Origin: Chryseobacterium gotjawalense | GTDB lineage: Bacteria; Bacteroidota; Bacteroidia; Flavobacteriales; Weeksellaceae | NCBI RefSeq assembly: GCF_030012525.1 | Contig: NZ_CP124855.1 | Location: 2,790,001 to 2,854,000, forward strand | DNA length: 64,000 nucleotides | Direction: 5' to 3' | Part shown: positions 1 to 10,253 of the stretch, piece by piece | Numbering within the stretch: position 1 is the first letter of the stretch | How the letters are laid out: each line of letters starts with the position of its first letter | Position numbers and translations under genes: made by a program | Notes under the pieces: model-generated | Database searches by the model: none | What the model was told of the DNA's origin: nothing | What the model saw: the letters and a program-made list of their open reading frames with translations, nothing else

Positions 1-920
1 AACTTCCTGCTGTAGAGATGAAGCCGATGACTTACATACCGACTTTCCCTATTTTCTGTTTTGTGCAGCGCCTTTTGTTTCCGTTTGGCACCATTTCCCG
101 AATGGCAGAAAGCAATACCGCTTTGAATTCTTTTCTGACTGGCTTGAATCGCCAACCTGCGGTATAAAAACTCCTCTTTTGAGCCAATATTCATCCGCAC
201 CTTATTGGCTTGTACCACGATCGGATGTTCCAAAGACAGGGAAGCTTCAGCAATAATTTCGGGTTTTAAAAGGTGCTCCTCTTTTTCAAATTCAAATACG
301 GCGAGCCAAAAGATTTTCCCTGCCTTCAACTGAATCTGTGAGGTACGAAGCGCGATGTCTTTTCTTAAGAGGCGTTCCAGGATCTCCCGCTTATCAGAAA
401 AGTCTCTCCCTAAATACGTTTTTACCGGAATCGCAAGCATATTGAAGCAAAACGCTTTTTTATCCGGATCATACCTCATTTTGGTGGTGTATTTTACCGG
501 AACAGGAATGGGAATGTCCTTTTTAAAGTTTCTCAATGATTTTAAGCCTTTCCAGTAATCCACTTTGTCTTTAGAAAAGTTAGACTGTATCGTATTGTTC
601 AGGCTTCCCAGAATATCGACGGGAATCTCCCCTTTGAAGCGGTCGAAAACCATGCGTGCGGTGGTGTGCGTTTTCGAACGGGTAAATATTCCCATTTCAT
701 CTTTTTTTTCATCAGCCAGCTTGTATTGGATTTCTTCCGTGAGGTAAAAGAAATCTTTGATCATTTCCTGCACATAGAGATGGGAAACAATTAAATTAGC
801 CGCCCGGAAACAGCGGTTCTGATAGCGGTAGAGTTTTTCCCACATCTCTCTTTTTTCATCTGCAGGAACGTCGATCAGGAGCTGAATTTTTCGGGTCAAT
901 GTCATTGTGGATTTTTCCAT
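1..920 (-). CDS. Cas12f-like protein, probably nuclease-dead (dCas12f); partial, C-terminus outside window
   Basis: An open minus-strand frame runs from ATG at 920 to the window edge, giving about 306 residues without a stop. Residues 1-225 look like the Cas12f/TnpB wedge and recognition part, including a segment of the type GLKSLRNFKKDIPIPV. Residues 220-306 align with the RuvC-I start and the following bridge helix (EEFLYRRLAIQ, then a GNGAKRKQKAL stretch and a YVSHRLHLYSRK stretch). In active members RuvC-I reads roughly G-[IV]-D-[LI]-G followed four residues later by a proline. Here it is EASLSLEHP, so the catalytic Asp becomes Ser227 and the following Gly becomes Ser229. RuvC-II and -III are not visible. 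The start is one base after the sigma-factor stop, which implies translational coupling; ATG at 905 is an alternative. I infer an RNA-guided DNA-binding protein that works with the sigma factor, not a nuclease. A TnpB-derived repressor is the main alternative, but the linked sigma gene argues against it. Confidence 0.78.
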   Translation of the reverse strand, partial: MEKSTMTLTRKIQLLIDVPADEKREMWEKLYRYQNRCFRAANLIVSHLYVQEMIKDFFYLTEEIQYKLADEKKDEMGIFTRSKTHTTARMVFDRFKGEIPVDILGSLNNTIQSNFSKDKVDYWKGLKSLRNFKKDIPIPVPVKYTTKMRYDPDKKAFCFNMLAIPVKTYLGRDFSDKREILERLLRKDIALRTSQIQLKAGKIFWLAVFEFEKEEHLLKPEIIAEASLSLEHPIVVQANKVRMNIGSKEEFLYRRLAIQASQKRIQSGIAFCHSGNGAKRKQKALHKTENRESRYVSHRLHLYSRK

Positions 921-921
921 G

Positions 922-1737
922 TCAAAGTTTTATTTCAGAAGTTTTTTGATTTTGTAGATATTGATAGGCATACAGAAATTCCCGATGTACTTCCTTTTCA
1001 GGTAATTTAAGTTCTTGGGCAATCACCGCAAAAGAAGATTTCTGTTCAAACCTTCTTTTCATGATCTCCAATTGTTGACTGCTTAGTTTATCTAGTTGCT
1101 TTTCATTATCGAAAGCTTTTTTCTGTGACTGTTCAAAAGAACTTCTATTCAAAATTTTCCGAAGATCATCGATGGCTCTGCTCACCTCATTGCTGATGCC
1201 TGTCACGCTGCTTCCCATTGCTTCTGCGATGGGCTTGTACTGAAAGCCATATTCAAGGCAAAGTTCAATCAGGTGTTTCCTTTTGGGGTTCAGTACGTTT
1301 AAAACCTTTTGTACTTCATCAAAATTTCTTTGATCAGCTTCCTGACTGAGAAGATGCTCTTTATCCTGCTGGGGATCGTAACCTGCGAGGTAATCTTGGT
1401 AATTCTCATACCGTTCAAGGGAATTGATTAAACGGGAAAATTTATTCCTGGGCGCGTTAAAATAAGTTATACAGTCCCTCTTCAAAACAAACCGTAAAAA
1501 GCCAATGATATGATTCGGAGTTTCAATAGAGTCGCGGTGTAACCACAATTTAAGGAAGGTATCCTGAACAAGCGTTTCCACAACAAAATCATCGTCAAGC
1601 ATTTGTTTTCCGAGCCAGAACAGCAATCTTTTGTAGCGTAGATGAATGTGTTCCATGGATGCAGGATCGCCTTTTTTCAGCAGTTCGTACAACTGAAGAT
1701 CGGTCAACTTCCGGGGCAAAGAGTCTGTATTTTTCAT
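922..1737 (-). CDS. ECF-like sigma factor with an extra C-terminal HTH, linked to dCas12f
   Basis: The protein has 271 residues. Region sigma-2 is at about 10-95 (LVQDTFLKLWLHRDSI, then FLRFVLKRDCITYF). Region sigma-4 is at about 138-196 (LNPKRKHLIELCLEYGF, then PIAEAMGSSVTGISNEVSRAIDDL). Ordinary ECF sigmas are about 170-200 residues and stop there. This one continues for 75 residues, and residues 217-262 (LSSQQLEIMKRRFEQKSSF, then VIAQELKLPEKEVHREFLYAY) look like a second sigma-4-type helix-turn-helix. No anti-sigma gene follows. The next gene is the Cas12f-like protein, one base downstream. Inferred role: the sigma is recruited to promoters by the guide-RNA-loaded dCas12f and brings core RNA polymerase. 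ATG 1737 is used; a longer in-frame start is not evident. Upstream lies a structured leader RNA. Confidence 0.85.
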   Translation of the reverse strand: MKNTDSLPRKLTDLQLYELLKKGDPASMEHIHLRYKRLLFWLGKQMLDDDFVVETLVQDTFLKLWLHRDSIETPNHIIGFLRFVLKRDCITYFNAPRNKFSRLINSLERYENYQDYLAGYDPQQDKEHLLSQEADQRNFDEVQKVLNVLNPKRKHLIELCLEYGFQYKPIAEAMGSSVTGISNEVSRAIDDLRKILNRSSFEQSQKKAFDNEKQLDKLSSQQLEIMKRRFEQKSSFAVIAQELKLPEKEVHREFLYAYQYLQNQKTSEIKL

Positions 1738-1841
1738 AAGCAGCGTTTTTTAACCATTGCTGGAAGGAACTGCTTAGATCTTTATATGAATTCTCTGCAT
1801 CATTCAAAACACTATCTCACTACATCTTGCCCAAAATAAAA

Positions 1842-2003
1842 GGCGTGGAACTCAACTTACTGACTAGAGGTACTGGTATACCTGTGTACGATAAGTGAGC
1901 CCACGCCGAGGTCGTGGGCACATTTACTTATCAACTCGTACACATAAAAATTACCAGTTTTCTAGTCGAGAATCTAAGCAATAGCTTCGATTGTTATTGA
2001 AGT
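1842..2003 (-). ncRNA. Structured leader RNA, candidate guide-RNA scaffold for the dCas12f-sigma system
   Basis: Nested complementary segments form one long imperfect hairpin over 1862-1967: GACTAG(1862)/CTAGTC(1962), ACTGGTA(1872)/TACCAGT(1952), TGTGTAC(1883)/GTACACA(1938), GATAAGT(1890)/ACTTATC(1926), GCCCACG(1899)/CGTGGGC(1913). A second hairpin lies at 1978-2008. Read on the minus strand, the apical stem contains GGCGTGG (1907-1901), which is fully complementary to CCACGCC at 1848-1842, giving a possible pseudoknot. Long stems plus a pseudoknot are the style of Cas12f tracr/guide scaffolds. A guide would then follow at about 1841-1820. Alternatively the 7-bp pairing followed by TTTTATTTT is an attenuator or terminator. 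A plus-strand orientation is less likely because the good promoter is on the minus strand. Confidence 0.6.
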
Positions 2004-2007
2004 ATTG

Positions 2008-2039
2008 CAAAGTTACTTTTATTGTAACTTATTTAGCAA
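2008..2039 (-). promoter_or_regulatory. Promoter for the leader RNA and dCas12f-sigma operon
   Basis: On the minus strand there is TTG at 2039-2037, a 21-base spacer, then TAACTTTG at 2015-2008. This matches the Bacteroidota housekeeping promoter TTG-N19-21-TAnnTTTG. Transcription would start near 2003-2000, within the first hairpin. Confidence 0.6.
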
Positions 2040-2126
2040 ATATAAAACATTTTTCTTAATGTAGGTTAATTCGACTACAATAATTTATTGAAATCTTATC
2101 ATTTTGTTTGTTCAAAGTTAATCGCA

Positions 2127-2351
2127 ATGGATAAATTAGAATTTAGAATAGCATTTGGTAAAAGAGTTGAGGAGTTTAGGAAAAAGCTGAATTTGAGTTA
2201 TAGAGAGTTGGCTCAAAAATGTGATGTAGATCATAGTAATATTAGCAAAATAGAAAAAGGGGAAGTAGATGTTAGAATCTCTACTGTTCAAGAGTTAGCA
2301 AAAGGGTTAGATGTGCATCCACAGGAACTATTTGATTTTAAATTAAAGTAA
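2127..2351 (+). CDS. XRE-family HTH regulator, probable controller of the adjacent restriction-modification operon
   Basis: From ATG 2127 this is a 74-residue protein that is almost entirely one helix-turn-helix domain (GKRVEEFRKKLNLSYRELA, then DVDHSNISKIEKGEVDVRIS). It is of the compact XRE class, which includes C-proteins that time expression of restriction-modification genes. An in-frame ATG at 2088 would add 13 residues (KSYHFVCSKLIA) that do not resemble the family, so 2127 is preferred. It lies 465 bases ahead of hsdM on the same strand, with its own terminator, and is divergent from the dCas12f-sigma operon. Regulation of hsdM is inferred from position and from a palindrome at the hsdM start. 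Confidence 0.8.
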   Translation: MDKLEFRIAFGKRVEEFRKKLNLSYRELAQKCDVDHSNISKIEKGEVDVRISTVQELAKGLDVHPQELFDFKLK

Positions 2352-2815: not shown

Positions 2816-4381
2816 ATGAATATGGCTAAAAAAGTACAAACTAAAAACACCGAAGAAATCCTCTGGGATTCTGCCAATAAATTAAGAGGTTCCGTAGAAC
2901 CGTCCGAATATAAACACGTAGTGTTGAGTTTGATTTTCCTCAAGTTTGCGAATGACAAATTTCTGAGACGGAGACAAGAACTCATCAATGAACACAAAGA
3001 AGCTTTCTTAGAAATTCCCGAATTTTATCAGGCAGAAAATGTCTTTTATCTGCCGGAAGAATCGCGCTGGACTTATATCATTGAAAATGCAAAACAGGAA
3101 GACATTACCCTGAAAGTAGATTCTGCCCTGAAAACCATTGAGCGCACCAACAAATCTCTGGAAGGTGCTTTGCCCGATAATTATTTTACCCGCCTCGGAT
3201 TGGATCAGTCTAAGTTCTCGGCTTTGCTGGATACCATTAACAATATTGATACACTGAAAGATGAATCCCAAGACATTGTGGGTCGTGTTTACGAATATTT
3301 CTTGAGCAAATTTGCCATTGCAGAAGGGAAAGGAAAAGGAGAATTCTACACGCCAAAATCTATTGTAAACCTTATCGCTGAAATGATAGAACCTTACAAA
3401 GGGAAAATCTATGATCCTTCCTGTGGTTCGGGTGGGATGTTTGTACAGTCGCTAAAGTTTATAGAAAAACATAAGGGAAACAAAAAAGATGTTTCTATCT
3501 ATGGTCAGGAACTGACCAATACGACGTACAAACTGGCAAAAATGAATCTCGCCATCCGTGGGATTTCTTCTAATCTGGGAATTAAAGCGGCAGATACTTT
3601 TGGGGATGACCAACACAAGGATCTGAAAGCCGACTACATAATGGCAAATCCGCCATTTAATTTAAAAGATTGGCGTGCAGAAAACGAACTGACCAATGAT
3701 CCGCGATGGGCAGGATATGAAGTGCCGCCGAAATCGAATGCCAATTATGCGTGGATTCTGAATATGATTTCTAAACTTTCTCAGAATGGCGTTGCCGGAT
3801 TTATTTTGGCAAACGGTGCTTTGAGCGGTGGTGGCGAAGAATATAAAATACGGAAGCAGATTATTGAAAATGATTTGGTGGAAGCGGTGGTGATATTGCC
3901 AAGAGCAATGTTTTATTCTACCGATATTTCGGTTACGCTTTGGATTCTGAACCGCAACAAAAACGAAAGAACTTTTGAAGTGAACGATGGCATAAAAAAT
4001 TACCGTAACCGAAATGGCGAAGTTTTGTTTATGGATCTGCGCCAGAAAGGTGAACCGTTTGAAAAGAAATTCGTTCAGTTTGGCGAAGAAGAGATTACTG
4101 TGATAGCAGCTCATTATCACAGTTGGCAACAGAACAACTGGAAAGAAAGTTATCAAGACATTCCTGAATATTCTTACAGTGCGAGTCTGGAAGACATCCG
4201 TAAAAAAGATTATTCTTTGGTACCGAGTAAATATATTGAATTTGTGAACCGCGATGAAAGTCTGGATTATGATGAGCAAATGCAGAGTTTACAGACTGAT
4301 TTAAAAGATTTGTTTCAGCAGGAAAGTGAGTTGAAAAAAGAGGTTTCCAATGTTTTTAAAACTTTGGGATATGAGTTATAA
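2816..4381 (+). CDS. hsdM: Type I restriction-modification DNA methyltransferase subunit
   Basis: The protein has 521 residues, normal for HsdM. An N-terminal helical domain (LWDSANKLRGSVEPSEYK, residues about 16-34) precedes the N6-adenine methyltransferase fold. FYTPKSIVNLIAEMIEP begins the catalytic part, DPSCGSGGMFVQS (about 199-211) is SAM motif I, and NPPF (about 278-281) is the catalytic motif IV. With HsdS it methylates adenine in a bipartite target, and with HsdR it forms the restriction complex. ATG 2822 (MAKK) is an equally good start. The 3' end overlaps hsdS by 11 bases. An uncharacterised giant gene sits between hsdS and hsdR in the same operon. Confidence 0.96.
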   Translation: MNMAKKVQTKNTEEILWDSANKLRGSVEPSEYKHVVLSLIFLKFANDKFLRRRQELINEHKEAFLEIPEFYQAENVFYLPEESRWTYIIENAKQEDITLKVDSALKTIERTNKSLEGALPDNYFTRLGLDQSKFSALLDTINNIDTLKDESQDIVGRVYEYFLSKFAIAEGKGKGEFYTPKSIVNLIAEMIEPYKGKIYDPSCGSGGMFVQSLKFIEKHKGNKKDVSIYGQELTNTTYKLAKMNLAIRGISSNLGIKAADTFGDDQHKDLKADYIMANPPFNLKDWRAENELTNDPRWAGYEVPPKSNANYAWILNMISKLSQNGVAGFILANGALSGGGEEYKIRKQIIENDLVEAVVILPRAMFYSTDISVTLWILNRNKNERTFEVNDGIKNYRNRNGEVLFMDLRQKGEPFEKKFVQFGEEEITVIAAHYHSWQQNNWKESYQDIPEYSYSASLEDIRKKDYSLVPSKYIEFVNRDESLDYDEQMQSLQTDLKDLFQQESELKKEVSNVFKTLGYEL

Positions 4382-5600
4382 AATTCTTGGCAATTATATA
4401 AGAAAGGTTGACAATAAAAATAAAGATTTTAAAGTACTTAATCTACAAGGACTGAGTATGAAGAAAGAATTTAGAAAATCAACATCTAATATTGTAGGAA
4501 CGGATTTGTCTAAATATAAAATTGTTAAACAAGGTCAATTCTGTTGCGATTTTATGTCTGTAATTCGAGTCCATAAATTACCCGTAGTATTGAATAATCT
4601 TGGAGAGGATGTTATCATTTCTCCTGCATACATTGTTTTTGAAATTACAGATAAAGATGTGCTTTTGCCAGAATATCTAATGATGTGGTTCAGAAGATCA
4701 GAATTTGACAGATATGCGGATTTCAGATGTGATAGCTCTATTCGGGGAGGTTTTCAGTGGGAGGAATTATGTGAAGTTGAACTTCCGGTTCCCTCAATTG
4801 AAGAACAGAGTAAGGCAGTAGAACAGTATCAAAGCGTAACAAACAAAATAAAAGTCAACGAGCAGATTTGCTCAACATTAGAAGCTACTGCGCAAGCTTT
4901 GTATAAACATTGGTTTGTGGATTTTGAGTTTCCAAATGAAGAGGGAAAACCTTACAAATCTTCCGGCGGTAAAATGGTTTGGAATGAAGAGCTTGGGAAG
5001 GAGATTCCGGAGGGGTGGGAAGTGAGGAGTTTGAAAAGTTTAGGGAATGTAATTACGGGAAAAACACCTTCAAGTTCTAATCCTGAAGATTTTGGAAACG
5101 AGTTTCAATTTGTAACTCCAAGTGATTTTGTTGGAAATAAAGTTATTACGGATTCTTCAAGAAAGTTATCAAAAATTGGAAGAAATAGACTTTCAAATAA
5201 GATCAATCCTAAGAAATCAGTCTTAGTAACTTGTATTGGTTCAGATATGGGTAAAGTTTCTTTGAATATAGAAGAATGTATTACCAATCAACAGATCAAC
5301 AGCATAGTTGGAAATAAAGAATATTATTCTGAATTTCTATATTATAAATTGAATGAACTTAAAGAAGAATTAAAAAGTATCGCTGTTGGTGGTTCAACTA
5401 TGCCGATGTTAAGTAAATCACAATTTGAAGCAATCGAAATATTAAAACCATTTGATGAGATAATGGAAAGTTTTTCTAATATTACTTGTGATATAACTGA
5501 TTATTATTCAATACAAAAAAAGCAAAATCGAAAACTCTCACAACTGCAAAGTTTGTTGTTGTCGCGGTTGGCGGTTGGGGAGGAAGAAAAGGTATTGTAA
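4371..5600 (+). CDS. hsdS: Type I restriction-modification specificity subunit
   Basis: The protein has 409 residues from ATG 4371, which overlaps the hsdM stop in the usual coupled way; an upstream ATG at 4350 lies deep in hsdM and is less likely. There are two target-recognition domains, about residues 1-150 and 200-350. Each is followed by a conserved helix: IEEQSKAVEQYQSVTNKI then ALYKHWFVDFEFP, and IQKKQNRKLSQLQSLLLSRL near the end. PEGWEVRSL marks the start of the second domain. The two recognition domains differ, as expected for a bipartite target. Base composition in the recognition domains is more AT-rich than hsdM, a common sign of domain swapping. Confidence 0.95.
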   Translation: MSYKILGNYIRKVDNKNKDFKVLNLQGLSMKKEFRKSTSNIVGTDLSKYKIVKQGQFCCDFMSVIRVHKLPVVLNNLGEDVIISPAYIVFEITDKDVLLPEYLMMWFRRSEFDRYADFRCDSSIRGGFQWEELCEVELPVPSIEEQSKAVEQYQSVTNKIKVNEQICSTLEATAQALYKHWFVDFEFPNEEGKPYKSSGGKMVWNEELGKEIPEGWEVRSLKSLGNVITGKTPSSSNPEDFGNEFQFVTPSDFVGNKVITDSSRKLSKIGRNRLSNKINPKKSVLVTCIGSDMGKVSLNIEECITNQQINSIVGNKEYYSEFLYYKLNELKEELKSIAVGGSTMPMLSKSQFEAIEILKPFDEIMESFSNITCDITDYYSIQKKQNRKLSQLQSLLLSRLAVGEEEKVL

Positions 5601-5783: not shown

Positions 5784-8700
5784 ATGATACATTCCAAACA
5801 CAAGAAATATAGACTAGAATCGATTACAGATAATACGGCATGGGTTTATGATATTGCTAATCAAATGCAACATCGTTGTTTTGTTTTAGACCACAAAATA
5901 GGTGATGAGTTTTATCTTTTTGAGAGAGAAATGAACATATTCAATGGTCATATTACTTTTGAGTACAGTATTCTCAATCTTTACGAGGTAGGTAAAATAT
6001 ACAACTTTGAAATTGTGAAGGAAACCGAGAAAGTAATTGTGGTTTCTAATTATAGCAGACTAGAGATTGCTGTTCCGCTATCTTTTAAAGAATCAGAAGA
6101 TCAGGAAGATATTGATTTGGAGATCTATGATTTAGATTTGGCGCATAATAAACTTAAGTTTAAAAGTAAGGGAAATTTTTCTTCGAATGGTGGCGAACAG
6201 TCAGAGGTCGACTATACTGTTTTTAATGAGAACGAGATTTATACCTTACCTGTAAGCAAGACCTACATTAATAGGAATAATAATTTATTTGCAGTAGCTG
6301 AATACCAAGGAAAGCAATTTAGTATAAACATTCCTCCAACATTGATTCAGGAACAAATTGGGAATAATATTACTATTCATTTAGGGTTTTTTAGTGATGG
6401 AAGACCGACCTTAAAAGTAGTTCGTTCTTTCGTTACCTCCAAACTTTACAAAGTGGGTGATCGTTCTAATTTTATTATCGATAAGCAAATTCACGATTCA
6501 GAAAGCGGGATGACATATTGGTCTCTTAAAGATCAATATAATATGTATAATAATTATCATCCGAGTAACGATATTTCATTTAGTGTAGCGATGAATAATC
6601 TGCAGGAAGGTGATTCTCTTAGTTTATATATTTTTAGAATTACAGAAAAAGGGTATTTGGATTTAGTGAATGAAATCACTGACTGGGACAGTATAAATTA
6701 TTTGATAGAAGATGTTTTTGAGGCAATAGGTTATGAGGATGAAGAAGACAGGTATTTTTTTAACCTTCTCTCAGATTTTGAAAATGTAGATGATCCCTTG
6801 GTAGAGAAAAAAAACCTGTCATTTATTGATCAATATAATGATGGTGAGAATTTATGGGTATTTACTTATTTAGCATTTTTAGATTCAGAGATTTTTAAAA
6901 AATTAGATGAAGGTGAATATGAAGAAGCAAAAACGCTCACCGATATTTATATTAAAATTGAAAAATGGATACTAGAAGGATCTGACTATCTGAAGAACTT
7001 TAGTTTGCACAAAACCACAGAGATTATTCAGAAGGCAGAGAGTAAAATTGAAAAATTAGAAGCAATGCTTAACGCCATTGATCTTTATTTGGAGGATAAA
7101 GATCAAGATTTTCTATTGGGAATCAAAGACAGCCTGAATCGATCACCATATTTAAGTAAATCCAATAAAAACATTCTAAAAGAACTGGTGAAGATCTCGC
7201 AATTCTTTAACGCAGATTCAAACGATGAAAATTTGTACGATGCTATTTTCTTGATGATTAAACATGGCTTTATTCAAGATGACGATCGTTACACTTATAT
7301 TCGCTCCATCGAATCTAAAATAAGCAGAGTAAGAGATAAAATTTTAGAAGCTCGCTCCGAAAATTTTATTGAAGATGAGAATGTGAATCTTCGATTTCTC
7401 GTTTCTAATCAATATTTGCTGGTCATTTTCAATGTACTTGACAAAAACTATTTTAGAGCAAGTATCTCCTCTATTAATCTTCTGCGTTTTCTTGCTATTT
7501 ATTATAATGACGTTGAATATTTAAATTTTGCAATTAAACTTGCAGTAAGACAAGGATATTTACATCCGAATATTCTTAGACATAGCGATATTTACGACAT
7601 TTCTCTCCCTGAACTAAAAAAACTTAGTGTAGATTCTGAAATTAAAGATACGTATTGCCCTGGCGCAGGAAGAATTTTTTGTTCACAAGCAGGATTAGAA
7701 TTCGTGCCGAGAAATCTTTACAGGAAAAATTTAATAAAGGACAAAGTGCAAATAGCTGCACTTGATACTTTTAATTTATTTATTTCGTCAACGCTAGAAA
7801 CAGATCCTATTTGTTCCGAGGATGATTTAAATGATCTTCTTAAAAAAATCATAGCGAAAATATCTTTTGCTAAACAAAGAAAGGAGAAAGTAGAAGAACC
7901 TCTTTCAGATAATGTATTGAATAAAATTTATAGCGGAAGGATAAAATCTTTTCATAATGATAATCAAAGTATCTGCTATTTAAGGTGCGATATAGATGGT
8001 ATAAAAAAGGATACTCTTTTACACATCAATTCCTACCACAAAGTAAAAGCGCTAAGTAATGTGGCTGATTTTCTTCAGATCAATGACCTTATTCATTTTG
8101 AGATTATTGGTATTGAAGGTGAAAGGATAGTGATTTCACCGAAGTTTGCATTAGATGCATATACTGATGAGCTTTTATATGAGCCTGTAGATACAATTGG
8201 TAAAGTAGTTAAGGTTTATGGAGACAAATCTTATGTAATCACCCAAGAGGGCTGGCCAGTTTTTTTACCAAAATCTAATTTAACGGTTAATGATATACTT
8301 GAAGTAACAGTATCAGATTATTCGCAAGAACATCAGTCTTTTTACACGTCGAATTATAGGTTAACCGATCAGCAGTATGTCGGTGAAACTGAAGATAATT
8401 ATCGAAATTATCTTATTTCTGCAGGGATGCTTTGTGAATATATTGACGGGAAGGAAACCAATGAAGACCAAACTGAACACGATAATGTACAAAGTTCTGA
8501 AGAAACAGAAACAGAAGTTCTGTACGACCAAAATCTAAAAATCATCTCAAATTTGGTTCTAAATTGCTTAGAACAACGCTTGTTTTATATAAAGGAACCA
8601 AAAGAACTTACACTTAATTATTTCTTTTTAATCGTAATTTCGGGGATTATAAAAAGTAATAAATCATTTATCTACAATAGTAAACTAAATGATTTAGCGG

Positions 8701-10253
8701 AAATTGTAAAACTGGAATATGAAGAGGATTTCGAAGTATTATCGACACCGGAGACAGAATCAGAAAATGGTATTGCTAATTTGCAACTTGATCAAGACTC
8801 AGAGGTTTTTTTATTAATCAAATATATCAATACTGAGATTTTAGATCTTCCGATTAATTTACCTCCAGATTCGAAGTTTTATATTCTTAAAAAATTAATA
8901 GAATCTAATAATTTATTTTTCTCATTAGATAAAAATGCATCTGTTCTTAAGTATTTGCGCAAAGTTATTATTAGCGAACTTTATAATGTTACGATTACAG
9001 GAGATAAAAACTCTATTAAAGAGTTTGAAGCTGTTCTACTTGGTGATAGTACAAGTGAAGAGAATGAAAATAATAAAAAGGTGATTACAAATCTTGGCGC
9101 AGAGTCAAAAAATAAAGAGTTTAAAACATCTGTTTTTTATTCTGCATCAGATGAACCACAGCAAAAAGTAATCTTAAGAACAATAGCAGGATTTTTAAAT
9201 TCTTACGATGGCGGAGGTTCTTTATTTATCGGTGTAGATGATTCAGGTGATATTAAAGGGTTAAAAAATGATTTAAGTTTTGATGATAAAATTAATACGC
9301 TGGATAACTACCAAAATTATATTCAGTCACTTGTAGTGTCGGTATTTCCAAAAGAAATAAATGCCTTGTTGGATTATAAATTTCATAAATCAAATTTGTT
9401 AAATTATCTCGAAATTGTAGTGCCAAGATTTGACAAACCGATTCCTTTTGAAAATGAGTTCTACCAAAGACAAGGAGTACAAACAAGAATTTTAAAAGGT
9501 GCAGACCTGGTAGATTTTATGTATCGAAAGGTTAATATAAGTAATCGAATAATAAATATACAAGATGAAGTTCAAACTGAGGACGAAGTCGAATTTCAAA
9601 CATTTGATAATGTACATCAATTAAGTTTTGAAGAATTTGATAATAAAACTGAACTTGAAATTCAAATCGAAGATTTTTATGCAGACCTAAAAAAAGAGGG
9701 CGACAGAAGCGCTAATTATGAAAGTTTGACAAGAGAAAATTTATTAGGATATCTGTATATATTCAAAGATAATACTTACATGATGTCATCTGCGGAGTTT
9801 GATGATTACCTATTTCGAGTCGAAATTACTGAAAAATACAAATTTGCACATCTTCTATTATGTTATGATAATGCATGTGTCAACAAAGTTGAAATTAGAA
9901 GCATTTTGAATAGACCTTTTAATAAAAGGTATATGAATGCTATGAGTGACTATGGGAAATTAATGTCGATATTCCCTTTTCTTCCGAATTCAGAAATTGC
10001 AATTATAACGCAGAGATTTGATAAAACATATATTAAGTTATTTGAAACAAAAAAAATATCCGAACACCGTATTATAGGATTAAAAGGAAATTGTATTGTA
10101 CAGGAAGATTTTGATCAGGTTTTAGCCTATCATCCTACTGAAAAATTACCCGAAGATTTTGATTTATTTAGGCGAGAGTCTAAACAAGGTTTAGGTTGTG
10201 AGACTAGTAAAGACCCAAAATTATATAATGTTCTAATTAAAGACCTTTCTTGA
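5784..10253 (+). CDS. Giant OB/S1-like and AlbA_2 (Schlafen) domain protein inside the hsd operon
   Basis: The 1489-residue protein is unlike any standard restriction subunit. Residues 1-300 contain repeated beta-rich segments resembling OB folds. Residues about 300-700 are mostly helical. Residues about 715-865 resemble tandem S1/OB domains (IYSGRIKSFHN, LLHINSYHK, ERIVISPK, then IGKVVKVYGDKSYVI). Residues about 1095-1240 form an AlbA_2/Schlafen domain: GAESKNKEFKTS, IAGFLNSYDGGGSLFIGVDD, then a DNYQNYIQSLV segment. AlbA_2 domains occur in nucleic-acid-binding and tRNA/DNA-cleaving proteins. The last 250 residues are unrecognised. No Walker motif or PD-(D/E)xK motif was seen. It lies between hsdS and hsdR, 10 bases before hsdR, and is much more AT-rich than hsdM or hsdR, which suggests insertion. 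Inferred role: an accessory anti-phage effector or silencer that acts with, or is guarded by, the type I system. Confidence 0.75.
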   Translation: MIHSKHKKYRLESITDNTAWVYDIANQMQHRCFVLDHKIGDEFYLFEREMNIFNGHITFEYSILNLYEVGKIYNFEIVKETEKVIVVSNYSRLEIAVPLSFKESEDQEDIDLEIYDLDLAHNKLKFKSKGNFSSNGGEQSEVDYTVFNENEIYTLPVSKTYINRNNNLFAVAEYQGKQFSINIPPTLIQEQIGNNITIHLGFFSDGRPTLKVVRSFVTSKLYKVGDRSNFIIDKQIHDSESGMTYWSLKDQYNMYNNYHPSNDISFSVAMNNLQEGDSLSLYIFRITEKGYLDLVNEITDWDSINYLIEDVFEAIGYEDEEDRYFFNLLSDFENVDDPLVEKKNLSFIDQYNDGENLWVFTYLAFLDSEIFKKLDEGEYEEAKTLTDIYIKIEKWILEGSDYLKNFSLHKTTEIIQKAESKIEKLEAMLNAIDLYLEDKDQDFLLGIKDSLNRSPYLSKSNKNILKELVKISQFFNADSNDENLYDAIFLMIKHGFIQDDDRYTYIRSIESKISRVRDKILEARSENFIEDENVNLRFLVSNQYLLVIFNVLDKNYFRASISSINLLRFLAIYYNDVEYLNFAIKLAVRQGYLHPNILRHSDIYDISLPELKKLSVDSEIKDTYCPGAGRIFCSQAGLEFVPRNLYRKNLIKDKVQIAALDTFNLFISSTLETDPICSEDDLNDLLKKIIAKISFAKQRKEKVEEPLSDNVLNKIYSGRIKSFHNDNQSICYLRCDIDGIKKDTLLHINSYHKVKALSNVADFLQINDLIHFEIIGIEGERIVISPKFALDAYTDELLYEPVDTIGKVVKVYGDKSYVITQEGWPVFLPKSNLTVNDILEVTVSDYSQEHQSFYTSNYRLTDQQYVGETEDNYRNYLISAGMLCEYIDGKETNEDQTEHDNVQSSEETETEVLYDQNLKIISNLVLNCLEQRLFYIKEPKELTLNYFFLIVISGIIKSNKSFIYNSKLNDLAEIVKLEYEEDFEVLSTPETESENGIANLQLDQDSEVFLLIKYINTEILDLPINLPPDSKFYILKKLIESNNLFFSLDKNASVLKYLRKVIISELYNVTITGDKNSIKEFEAVLLGDSTSEENENNKKVITNLGAESKNKEFKTSVFYSASDEPQQKVILRTIAGFLNSYDGGGSLFIGVDDSGDIKGLKNDLSFDDKINTLDNYQNYIQSLVVSVFPKEINALLDYKFHKSNLLNYLEIVVPRFDKPIPFENEFYQRQGVQTRILKGADLVDFMYRKVNISNRIINIQDEVQTEDEVEFQTFDNVHQLSFEEFDNKTELEIQIEDFYADLKKEGDRSANYESLTRENLLGYLYIFKDNTYMMSSAEFDDYLFRVEITEKYKFAHLLLCYDNACVNKVEIRSILNRPFNKRYMNAMSDYGKLMSIFPFLPNSEIAIITQRFDKTYIKLFETKKISEHRIIGLKGNCIVQEDFDQVLAYHPTEKLPEDFDLFRRESKQGLGCETSKDPKLYNVLIKDLS

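What the first reader, a model, noticed from the sequence alone, without database searches (positions are those of the whole stretch)
1..2039. A dCas12f-like protein, a sigma factor and a structured RNA form one operon: probable RNA-guided transcription initiation
Seen: on the minus strand a consensus promoter, a long folded RNA, a sigma factor and a Cas12f-like frame follow one another with a 1-base gap between the proteins. Known: nuclease-dead Cas12f proteins paired with ECF sigma factors in Bacteroidota have recently been reported to recruit RNA polymerase to guide-specified promoters. Inference: this is such a system, in Weeksellaceae, in which promoter choice is written in an RNA guide, not in the sigma. 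The target is not in the window.
Basis: partly seen in the sequence, partly recalled or inferred. Interest (0 to 1): 0.97.

Follow-up and report, generated by a model that had tools for sequence, protein, structure and literature searches.

The report
RNA-guided sigma aimed at RNA switches
A nuclease-dead Cas12f gene and a sigma-factor gene sit beside predicted guide RNAs whose short guides match DNA in the system's own leader and in front of nutrient-uptake (SusC-type) genes, where the pair would likely start transcription on command of an RNA.

Summary
The minus strand carries a promoter-like box, a conserved folded leader, an ECF sigma and a Cas12f-like frame with a 1-nt gap. Completed beyond the window, the Cas protein (364 aa) is 65% identical, end to end, to the solved "Nuclease-deactivated Cas12f"; the sigma matches the RpoE chain of one of those entries. 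All three RuvC residues are gone.

The predicted guide RNAs lie past position 1, right after dcas12f, here four tandem units. The folded RNA in the window is an attenuator-like leader with two mutually exclusive covarying helices, found in 240 of 320 family genomes; 30 of 40 sampled copies precede a SusC-type gene. Guide 4 (GGCGTGGGCTC) occurs exactly twice in this genome: in the guide and in the switch arm of the operon's own leader (window 1907-1897), so a likely target IS in the window. Guide 2's core matches the switch arm of a second leader class, guide 1 a site before SusC. Salegentibacter's guide matches its SusC leader over 16 of 16 nt.

Best reading: RNA-guided initiation aimed at attenuator switch arms, likely overriding attenuation and feeding back on itself. 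Binding, start sites and sign of the effect are untested.

The parts
1..920 (-). dcas12f, 5' part (306 codons); full gene is 364 aa, G000:C1:2789826-2790920
   Evidence: ORF; 65% identical over full length to PDB 9n9c_A Nuclease-deactivated Cas12f, E 4.5e-158; RuvC D->S227, E->K322, protein ends before ZnF/RuvC-III
922..1737 (-). ECF-type sigma factor, 271 aa
   Evidence: Sigma70_r2 and r4, Sig70_bacteroi1 below its cut-off, PDB 9n9q_C RpoE E 1e-80, 49% identity over 246 residues
1831..1986 (-). class A leader RNA (attenuator-like), 156 nt
   Evidence: model R2 match 188 bits, a sequence the model was built from; covariation; no Rfam family at E<=1
1913..1919 (-). 5' arm GCCCACG of the upper hairpin
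   Evidence: pairs with the switch arm; that helix has 3 pairs with changes on both sides; position
1897..1907 (-). switch arm GGCGTGGGCTC = exact match to guide 4 (predicted dCas12f target, 5'-G in front of the GCGTGGG core)
   Evidence: only exact copy in the genome besides the guide itself; alternative helix with the tail
1842..1853 (-). tail GAGTTCCACGCC, complementary to the switch arm
   Evidence: 98.7% of cells paired, 5 pairs with changes on both sides, 0/500 shuffles on four of five measures
1833..1841 (-). T-rich run after the tail (TTTTATTTT): intrinsic-terminator-like end
   Evidence: sequence
2037..2044 (-). TATATTTG, Bacteroidota-type -7 box (motif recalled) 5' of the leader
   Evidence: conserved at the same place in the 14 leaders aligned; position
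2088..2351 (+). divergent Cro/C1-type HTH gene (ATG at 2127)
   Evidence: HTH_3 E 2e-14; a divergent ORF starts 70-160 nt 5' of 37 of 40 other leaders, 8 of 10 scanned are HTH

Best explanation
This is a dCas12f-sigma operon whose predicted guide RNAs, encoded just past the window edge, carry guides that match the DNA of the switch arm of attenuator-like leaders in front of its own operon and of SusC-type uptake operons, and the dCas12f-sigma complex is predicted to bind there and recruit RNA polymerase to start transcription further downstream. Shown by sequence: the dead, truncated Cas12f; the partner sigma; four scaffold-plus-guide units after the gene; the leader family with two mutually exclusive covarying helices; the guide matches. 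Inferred: that the guide RNA is made and bound, that an R-loop forms at the switch arm, and that sigma recruits RNA polymerase as recalled for the solved homologue. Inferred further: the promoter upstream makes transcripts that must pass the leader's terminator-like helix, whereas RNA-guided starts 3' of the switch arm would give transcripts that lack that arm and cannot form the helix. The system would thus override attenuation of its target operons and activate itself (positive feedback).
For: Homology to solved dCas12f and RpoE chains, the latter in one of the same entries. Scaffold and dCas12f co-occur: 76 and 75 of 320 genomes. Guide core GGCGTGGG after the scaffold in 53 of 57 loci. Exact GGCGTGGGCTC in 16 genomes that I chose, all with dCas12f: 38 hits against 2 for the reversed pattern; of the 30 fetched, 18 are leaders, 7 guides, 5 other; of the 8 not fetched, 6 fall in leaders and 1 behind a scaffold listed is unclassified. 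In this genome only guide and own leader. Second leader class: guide 2 core GAGCGGTTTTC = switch arm before SusC at G000:C1:251089, and in G277 the guide GGGGCGGTTTTC = that genome's own variant arm. Salegentibacter guide 16 of 16 in a leader before a SusC-type gene of the same genome. Nine class-A-like guides match the leader set better than shuffled guides do (0-6 of 200 as good). SusC signature after 30 of 40 sampled leaders.
Against: No expression, binding or start-site data. The leader occurs in 168 genomes without dCas12f and keeps GCGTGGG there as often (17 of 20 against 15 of 20), so it works alone. Only 28 of 57 loci have exact GGCGTGGG in the leader before sigma; others are mismatched (GGCAAGG, GGCGTGAG), decayed or absent. 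This genome's class A SusC leader reads GGCGTGAACTC, two mismatches to guide 4. Guide 1 targets have A, not G, on the 5' side and no switch-arm role was seen. Guide 3 has no exact target here. Guides of genus g11 match leaders of their own genomes only in part (best 11-13 of 14-16), Leeuwenhoekiella 12 of 16, Mesonia 9 of 10. G269 carries class B guides but no class B leader was found. G240 and G321 have no exact 11-mer. Activation rather than roadblock is not shown.
Confidence: 0.6

Rival explanations
1. The complex binds the switch arm but works mainly as a roadblock: the R-loop lies inside the transcribed leader, stops polymerase from the upstream promoter, and so represses susCD and its own operon (negative feedback), as TnpB-derived TldR repressors do.
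For: The target lies 3' of the TATATTTG box inside the leader. TldR repressors are known (abstract and other passages of PMC13418256 seen).
Against: A dedicated sigma lies 1 nt upstream of dcas12f in 52 of 57 loci, and a solved entry holds both dCas12f and RpoE, which fits recruitment better. Guide orientation puts the R-loop's far end towards the genes.
Confidence: 0.19
2. The guide-like 3' end acts on leader RNA, not DNA: it copies the switch arm and would pair with the leader's 5' arm or tail, tipping the terminator/antiterminator balance.
For: The guide is the switch arm itself and is therefore complementary to both the 5' arm and the tail. For two of nine guides the best antisense match to the leader set is as long as the best same-sense match (G207 14/14, one G205 guide 13/13).
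Against: For the other seven the same-sense match is better, most clearly GCGTGGGCTCTCTTAT (16 against 11) and GCGTGGGCTCACTT (14 against 11); a second guide is shifted along the leader to AGCTCACTTATCGTT. Cas12f relatives bind DNA (recalled).
Confidence: 0.11
3. A decaying TnpB relic: guide-leader identity reflects an old capture of leader DNA next to the gene with no present function.
For: Five of 57 loci have broken dcas12f frames and some leaders are decayed; array units carry remnants of the gene's 3' end.
Against: Guide core near-invariant in the 57 loci; guide variants follow leader variants in G277 and Salegentibacter; 48 of 57 frames are 364 aa.
Confidence: 0.07

Closest known systems
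dCas12f-sigmaE RNA-guided transcription systems (PDB 9n9c, 9n9m, 9n9o, 9n9q; paper recalled, not held in the library: Exapted CRISPR-Cas12f homologs drive RNA-guided transcription, Hoffmann et al.)
   Same: Full-length homologous dead Cas12f (65%) with the same early C-terminal end, homologous sigma (49% over 246 residues), adjacent genes, neighbouring predicted guide RNA.
   Different: Here four tandem guide-RNA units, guides that copy attenuator switch arms, and a match in the system's own leader; whether the paper reports any of this could not be read.
TldR (TnpB-like nuclease-dead repressors)
   Same: Nuclease-dead TnpB-type protein with a guide RNA and host-gene targets (passages of PMC13418256).
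   Different: TldR represses and has no partner sigma (recalled); here a sigma lies 1 nt upstream.
Transcription attenuators and riboswitch leaders
   Same: Two mutually exclusive helices, the later one followed by a T-run.
   Different: No Rfam 15 match at E<=1 in the 4 kb searched; ligand or signal unknown; one arm is copied into a guide RNA.
Active Cas12f (PDB 9nzo Cas12f Effector, 9nzr Cas12f Nuclease)
   Same: Sequence homology over residues 83-361, E 8e-39.
   Different: RuvC D and E replaced; third D and zinc finger missing here (residue roles recalled).

Membership tests
dCas12f-sigmaE RNA-guided transcription system | Cas12f homologue without RuvC catalytic residues | tested here: met
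   D->S227, E->K322, frame ends at residue 364 before ZnF/RuvC-III
dCas12f-sigmaE RNA-guided transcription system | adjacent partner ECF sigma | tested here: met
   1-nt gap; 54 of 57 related loci
dCas12f-sigmaE RNA-guided transcription system | sequence homology of both proteins to the solved chains | tested here: met
   9n9c_A E 4.5e-158; 9n9q_C E 1e-80
dCas12f-sigmaE RNA-guided transcription system | guide RNA encoded beside dcas12f | tested here: inconclusive
   conserved scaffold plus variable 3' end right after the stop; model R1 in 76 of 320 genomes versus 75 with dCas12f; that it is transcribed and bound is not shown
dCas12f-sigmaE RNA-guided transcription system | 5'-G target-adjacent motif (recalled) | tested here: inconclusive
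   G before the core in 67 of 69 distinct leaders and in class B, but A at guide 1 sites; the G may also be kept by leader pairing
dCas12f-sigmaE RNA-guided transcription system | guide-dependent RNA polymerase recruitment and start sites | not testable with these tools
   needs RNA and ChIP data
IS200/IS605 TnpB transposon | intact RuvC nuclease | tested here: not met
IS200/IS605 TnpB transposon | tnpA partner and transposon ends | not tested
   no tnpA-like ORF noticed by eye in the 14-kb ORF list; no model or end search was run
Transcription attenuator | mutually exclusive helices, the later one before a T-run | tested here: met
   both helices covary; T-run
Transcription attenuator | regulated termination | not testable with these tools
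   needs in vitro or in vivo transcription
Known Rfam family | match at or near threshold | tested here: not met
   0 matches at E<=1 for L003:6500-10500

The most novel reading that the evidence does not exclude
A gene-control layer in which guide RNAs are written as copies of the switch arms of transcription attenuators: an RNA-guided sigma reads those arms as DNA addresses, starts transcription past them, and so overrides RNA attenuation of a whole regulon of SusC/SusD uptake operons and of its own operon, with multi-guide arrays that follow sequence-unrelated leader classes as these change.
Probability: 0.42. Interest if true: 0.93.

Novelty: new variant of a known kind. Interest (0 to 1): 0.8.

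Why it matters
It proposes natural targets for RNA-guided sigma systems and a reason why one guide core is nearly invariant across genera: it addresses a leader element that is itself constrained. It ties CRISPR-derived transcription initiation to classic attenuation, adds an RNA family without an Rfam 15 match (present in 240 of 320 family genomes), and gives exact sites, one of them in the operon's own leader, at which the idea can be tested.

Tried and rejected
Guide RNA = the folded RNA in the window: rejected, because that RNA is found in many genomes without dCas12f and before SusC-type genes, and the scaffold lies 3' of dcas12f.

Guide 3 (GGGGCGGTTTTC) target in this genome: no exact site outside the array; the nearest seen is the class B arm, 10 of 11 of the core. 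Guide 2 core GAGCGGTTTTC, searched with G or T in front, has four exact sites outside the array in this genome, only one in a class B leader; the reversed pattern had 2 hits here, so that single match is weak alone. Its weight comes from the arm position, the 5' G and the G277 pair. Class B in 3 of 4 genomes with such guides versus 2 of 32 others, P=0.005, ignores that G000 and G267 are near relatives.

A possible third leader class (L179, arm GCGGGGGATAG) and the GGGGGAT guides of genus g11: no convincing pair found; left open. In one search guides 1-3 of this genome and guide 1 of L004 gave no clear excess over shuffles against class A leaders (28, 196, 199 and 200 of 200 as good), as expected if they aim elsewhere.

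Passages only were seen of PMC12803034 and PMC13418256. So I cannot say whether natural targets or leaders are already in print.

Not done: structure prediction, fold search, and searches of viral, phage, plasmid or metagenome collections.

Full report
WHERE IT LIES. The window is G000:C1:2790001-2854000 of a 3,266,523-base single-contig genome.

OBSERVATION. On the minus strand TATATTTG (2044-2037), a folded leader (1986-1831), sigma (1737-922) and a Cas12f-like frame (920 to beyond 1) follow each other; sigma stop and Cas start are 1 nt apart. The flank completes the frame to 364 aa.

THE PROTEINS. By sequence the Cas protein matches PDB 9n9c_A, "Nuclease-deactivated Cas12f", end to end (E 4.5e-158, 238 of 364 identical), and the sigma matches 9n9q_C "RpoE" (E 1e-80, 120 of 246 identical); 9n9q also holds the Cas12f chain. 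Against Cas12f effectors 9nzo and 9nzr the first RuvC aspartate is S227, the glutamate K322, and the protein ends before the zinc finger and third motif (which residues are catalytic is recalled). In 57 relatives the first site is S in 51 and the second K in 49; 48 are 364 aa, five are broken. A sigma homologue lies directly upstream in 54 of 57; the exceptions are L046, L051 (contig ends) and L054. 75 of 320 family genomes have a match to the protein, fragments included. A protein search gave 806 relatives at E<=1e-10; 120 were listed, the named ones as hypothetical protein or transposase.

THE GUIDE RNAs. Right after the dcas12f stop lies a conserved element of about 67 nt ending TATATACAAC, followed by a short variable stretch and a T-run. 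I take it as guide-RNA scaffold plus guide (inference). Here there are four tandem units, separated by remnants of the gene's 3' end (one still spells FQCTRCGH by eye, a zinc-finger-like piece missing from the gene). Scaffolds: G000:C1:2789743-2789809, 2789606-2789672, 2789068-2789134, 2788752-2788818; guides AGAGCTCCTCACATT, TGAGCGGTTTTC, GGGGCGGTTTTC, GGCGTGGGCTC. L004 and L010 have three units and L056 four; 53 of 57 loci show one, and L008, missed by that pattern, shows one. GGCGTGGG follows the scaffold in 53 of 57 loci; the exceptions are L028, L051, L054 and L056. The scaffold model finds 76 of 320 genomes, close to the 75 with the protein, with a few scaffolds away from it (G294, G074, G125).

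THE LEADER. The folded RNA in the window is a separate element. 36 copies (31 before sigma, 5 before SusC-type operons) align over 180 columns. The consensus fold has 39 pairs; 99.1% of cells pair, 16 pairs change on both sides, and no shuffle of 500 reaches this on four of five measures (30 do on the fifth). A second helix, which uses the hairpin's 3' arm (GGCGTGGGCTC) with a tail (GAGTTCCACGCC) just before a T-run, pairs in 98.7% of cells, with 5 pairs changed on both sides and 0 of 500 shuffles on four of five measures (50 on the fifth). The two exclude each other, as in an attenuator. For this copy the hairpin form scores -59.7 and the form with the second helix forced -49.6 kcal/mol, so the default may be read-through. 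Rfam 15 has no match at E<=1.

The leader model hits 240 of 320 family genomes. Read off the lists, 72 of 75 genomes with a dCas12f match and 168 of 245 without one have a leader. I fetched 40 listed copies outside sigma operons: a SusC signature occurs in the first ORFs downstream of 14 of 20 (genomes with dCas12f) and 16 of 20 (without). A divergent ORF starts 70-160 nt upstream of 37 of 40, and 8 of 10 scanned are Cro/C1-type HTH. The window's own HTH gene (2088-2351) has this position. Pfam confirms SusC-type receptors for two operons of this genome and SusD for one.

GUIDE MEETS LEADER. Guide 4's 11-mer occurs exactly twice in this genome: the guide, and the switch arm of the operon's own leader (window 1907-1897). 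In 16 genomes that I chose (all with dCas12f) there are 38 exact hits against 2 for the reversed pattern. Of the 30 returned as loci 18 are leaders, 7 guides, 5 other sites; of the other 8, by coordinates, 6 lie in leaders and 1 behind a scaffold, 1 is unclassified. GCGTGGG is kept in leaders of genomes without dCas12f (17 of 20) as well as with it (15 of 20), so the guide has presumably been fitted to a constrained site; that would explain its near-invariance (inference). Salegentibacter's guide GCGTGGGCTCTCTTAT matches a leader of the same genome, before a SusC-type gene, over 16 of 16 nt with G in front. Genus g11 has GCGTGGGCTCACTT, GCGTGGGTTCACTTAC and a shifted guide AGCTCACTTATCGTT; these match the leader set better than shuffles do, but leaders of their own genomes only in part (11 of 14, 13 of 16, 11-13 of 15). 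Mesonia matches 9 of 10, Leeuwenhoekiella 12 of 16 in their own leaders. Of nine such guides the same-sense match is better than the antisense one in seven and equal in two. A guide with the sense of the transcript would pair with the template DNA strand.

SECOND LEADER CLASS. Guide 2's core GAGCGGTTTTC lies at G000:C1:251089, 1.6 kb before a SusC gene, in a leader with a different switch: 5' arm GTGAAATCGCTCC, arm GGAGCGGTTTTCAC, tail GTGAAACCGCTCC and a T-run, again with a TATATTTG box and a divergent HTH-like gene. In G277 the arm reads GGGGCGGTTTTCAC and that genome's guide reads GGGGCGGTTTTC. Seven such leaders, two of them alike, share the three-part layout. They occur in 5 of 36 genomes of the genus: 3 of the 4 with such guides, 2 of the 32 others; G269 has the guides but no such leader was found. 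The second copy here (130 kb) has the arm GGAGTCGGTTTTCAC, one base longer.

GUIDE 1. AGAGCTCCTCACATT recurs 543 nt before SusC (G000:C1:3005548), at 3007482, and before SusC or TlpA-like genes (named by eye) in G267 and G277, in a repeated element downstream of the leaders. Its 5' neighbour is A; no switch role was seen.

MECHANISM. Known for the family (recalled): guide-directed binding with a 5'-G motif, sigma recruitment, start sites set by distance from the R-loop. Here G precedes the core in 67 of 69 distinct leaders. I infer that dCas12f-sigma binds the switch arm and starts transcription 3' of it; such transcripts would keep the tail but lose its partner, and so escape the terminator-like helix. 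At its own leader this would be positive feedback. A roadblock with the opposite sign remains possible.

AGAINST. Only 28 of 57 loci have exact GGCGTGGG in the leader before sigma; the rest have mismatched, decayed or no leader, or lie too near a contig end. This genome's class A SusC leader differs from guide 4 at two positions, though the same operon has the guide 1 site. Guide 3 has no exact target here. G240 and G321 have no exact 11-mer. No experiment supports any step.

NOVELTY. The operon is a member of the dCas12f-sigma kind. The attenuator-switch matches, the self-match and the multi-guide arrays make it, as far as I could check, a new variant; the key paper was not readable.

Noticed in passing
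window 2816-5600 (+): Type I restriction methyltransferase and specificity subunit genes next to the operon.
   Followed up: partly
window 5784-10253 (+): 1489-aa protein with a Schlafen AlbA_2 domain (residues 1107-1236) and no PADLOC match.
   Followed up: partly
L003:6750-7850 (-): Array units carry remnants of the dcas12f 3' end, one with a zinc-finger-like FQCTRCGH that the gene itself lacks: possible traces of the ancestor's C-terminus.
   Followed up: no
L064, L170, L171, L173-L179, L181: A repeated hairpin-like element (GGATTTGTCTTTAGTGGGGAAG...CTTTCCCCTAAGGCGATCC) in the long 5' regions of SusC-type operons of several genomes of the genus.
   Followed up: partly
L179, about 3900-4080 on the reverse strand: A possible third leader class with arm GCGGGGGATAG before a TlpA-like/SusC-type operon; genus g11 guides GGGGGAT may aim at such an arm.
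   Followed up: partly
L221, L227, L235, L238, L240, L247: Some leaders are followed not by SusC but by an ORF of 174-197 aa with a similar start (by eye); the one scanned, of L235, has no Pfam match.
   Followed up: partly
L298, L299, L300, L301: Guide-RNA scaffolds away from a listed dcas12f, one in a genome without a match to the protein (G294).
   Followed up: no
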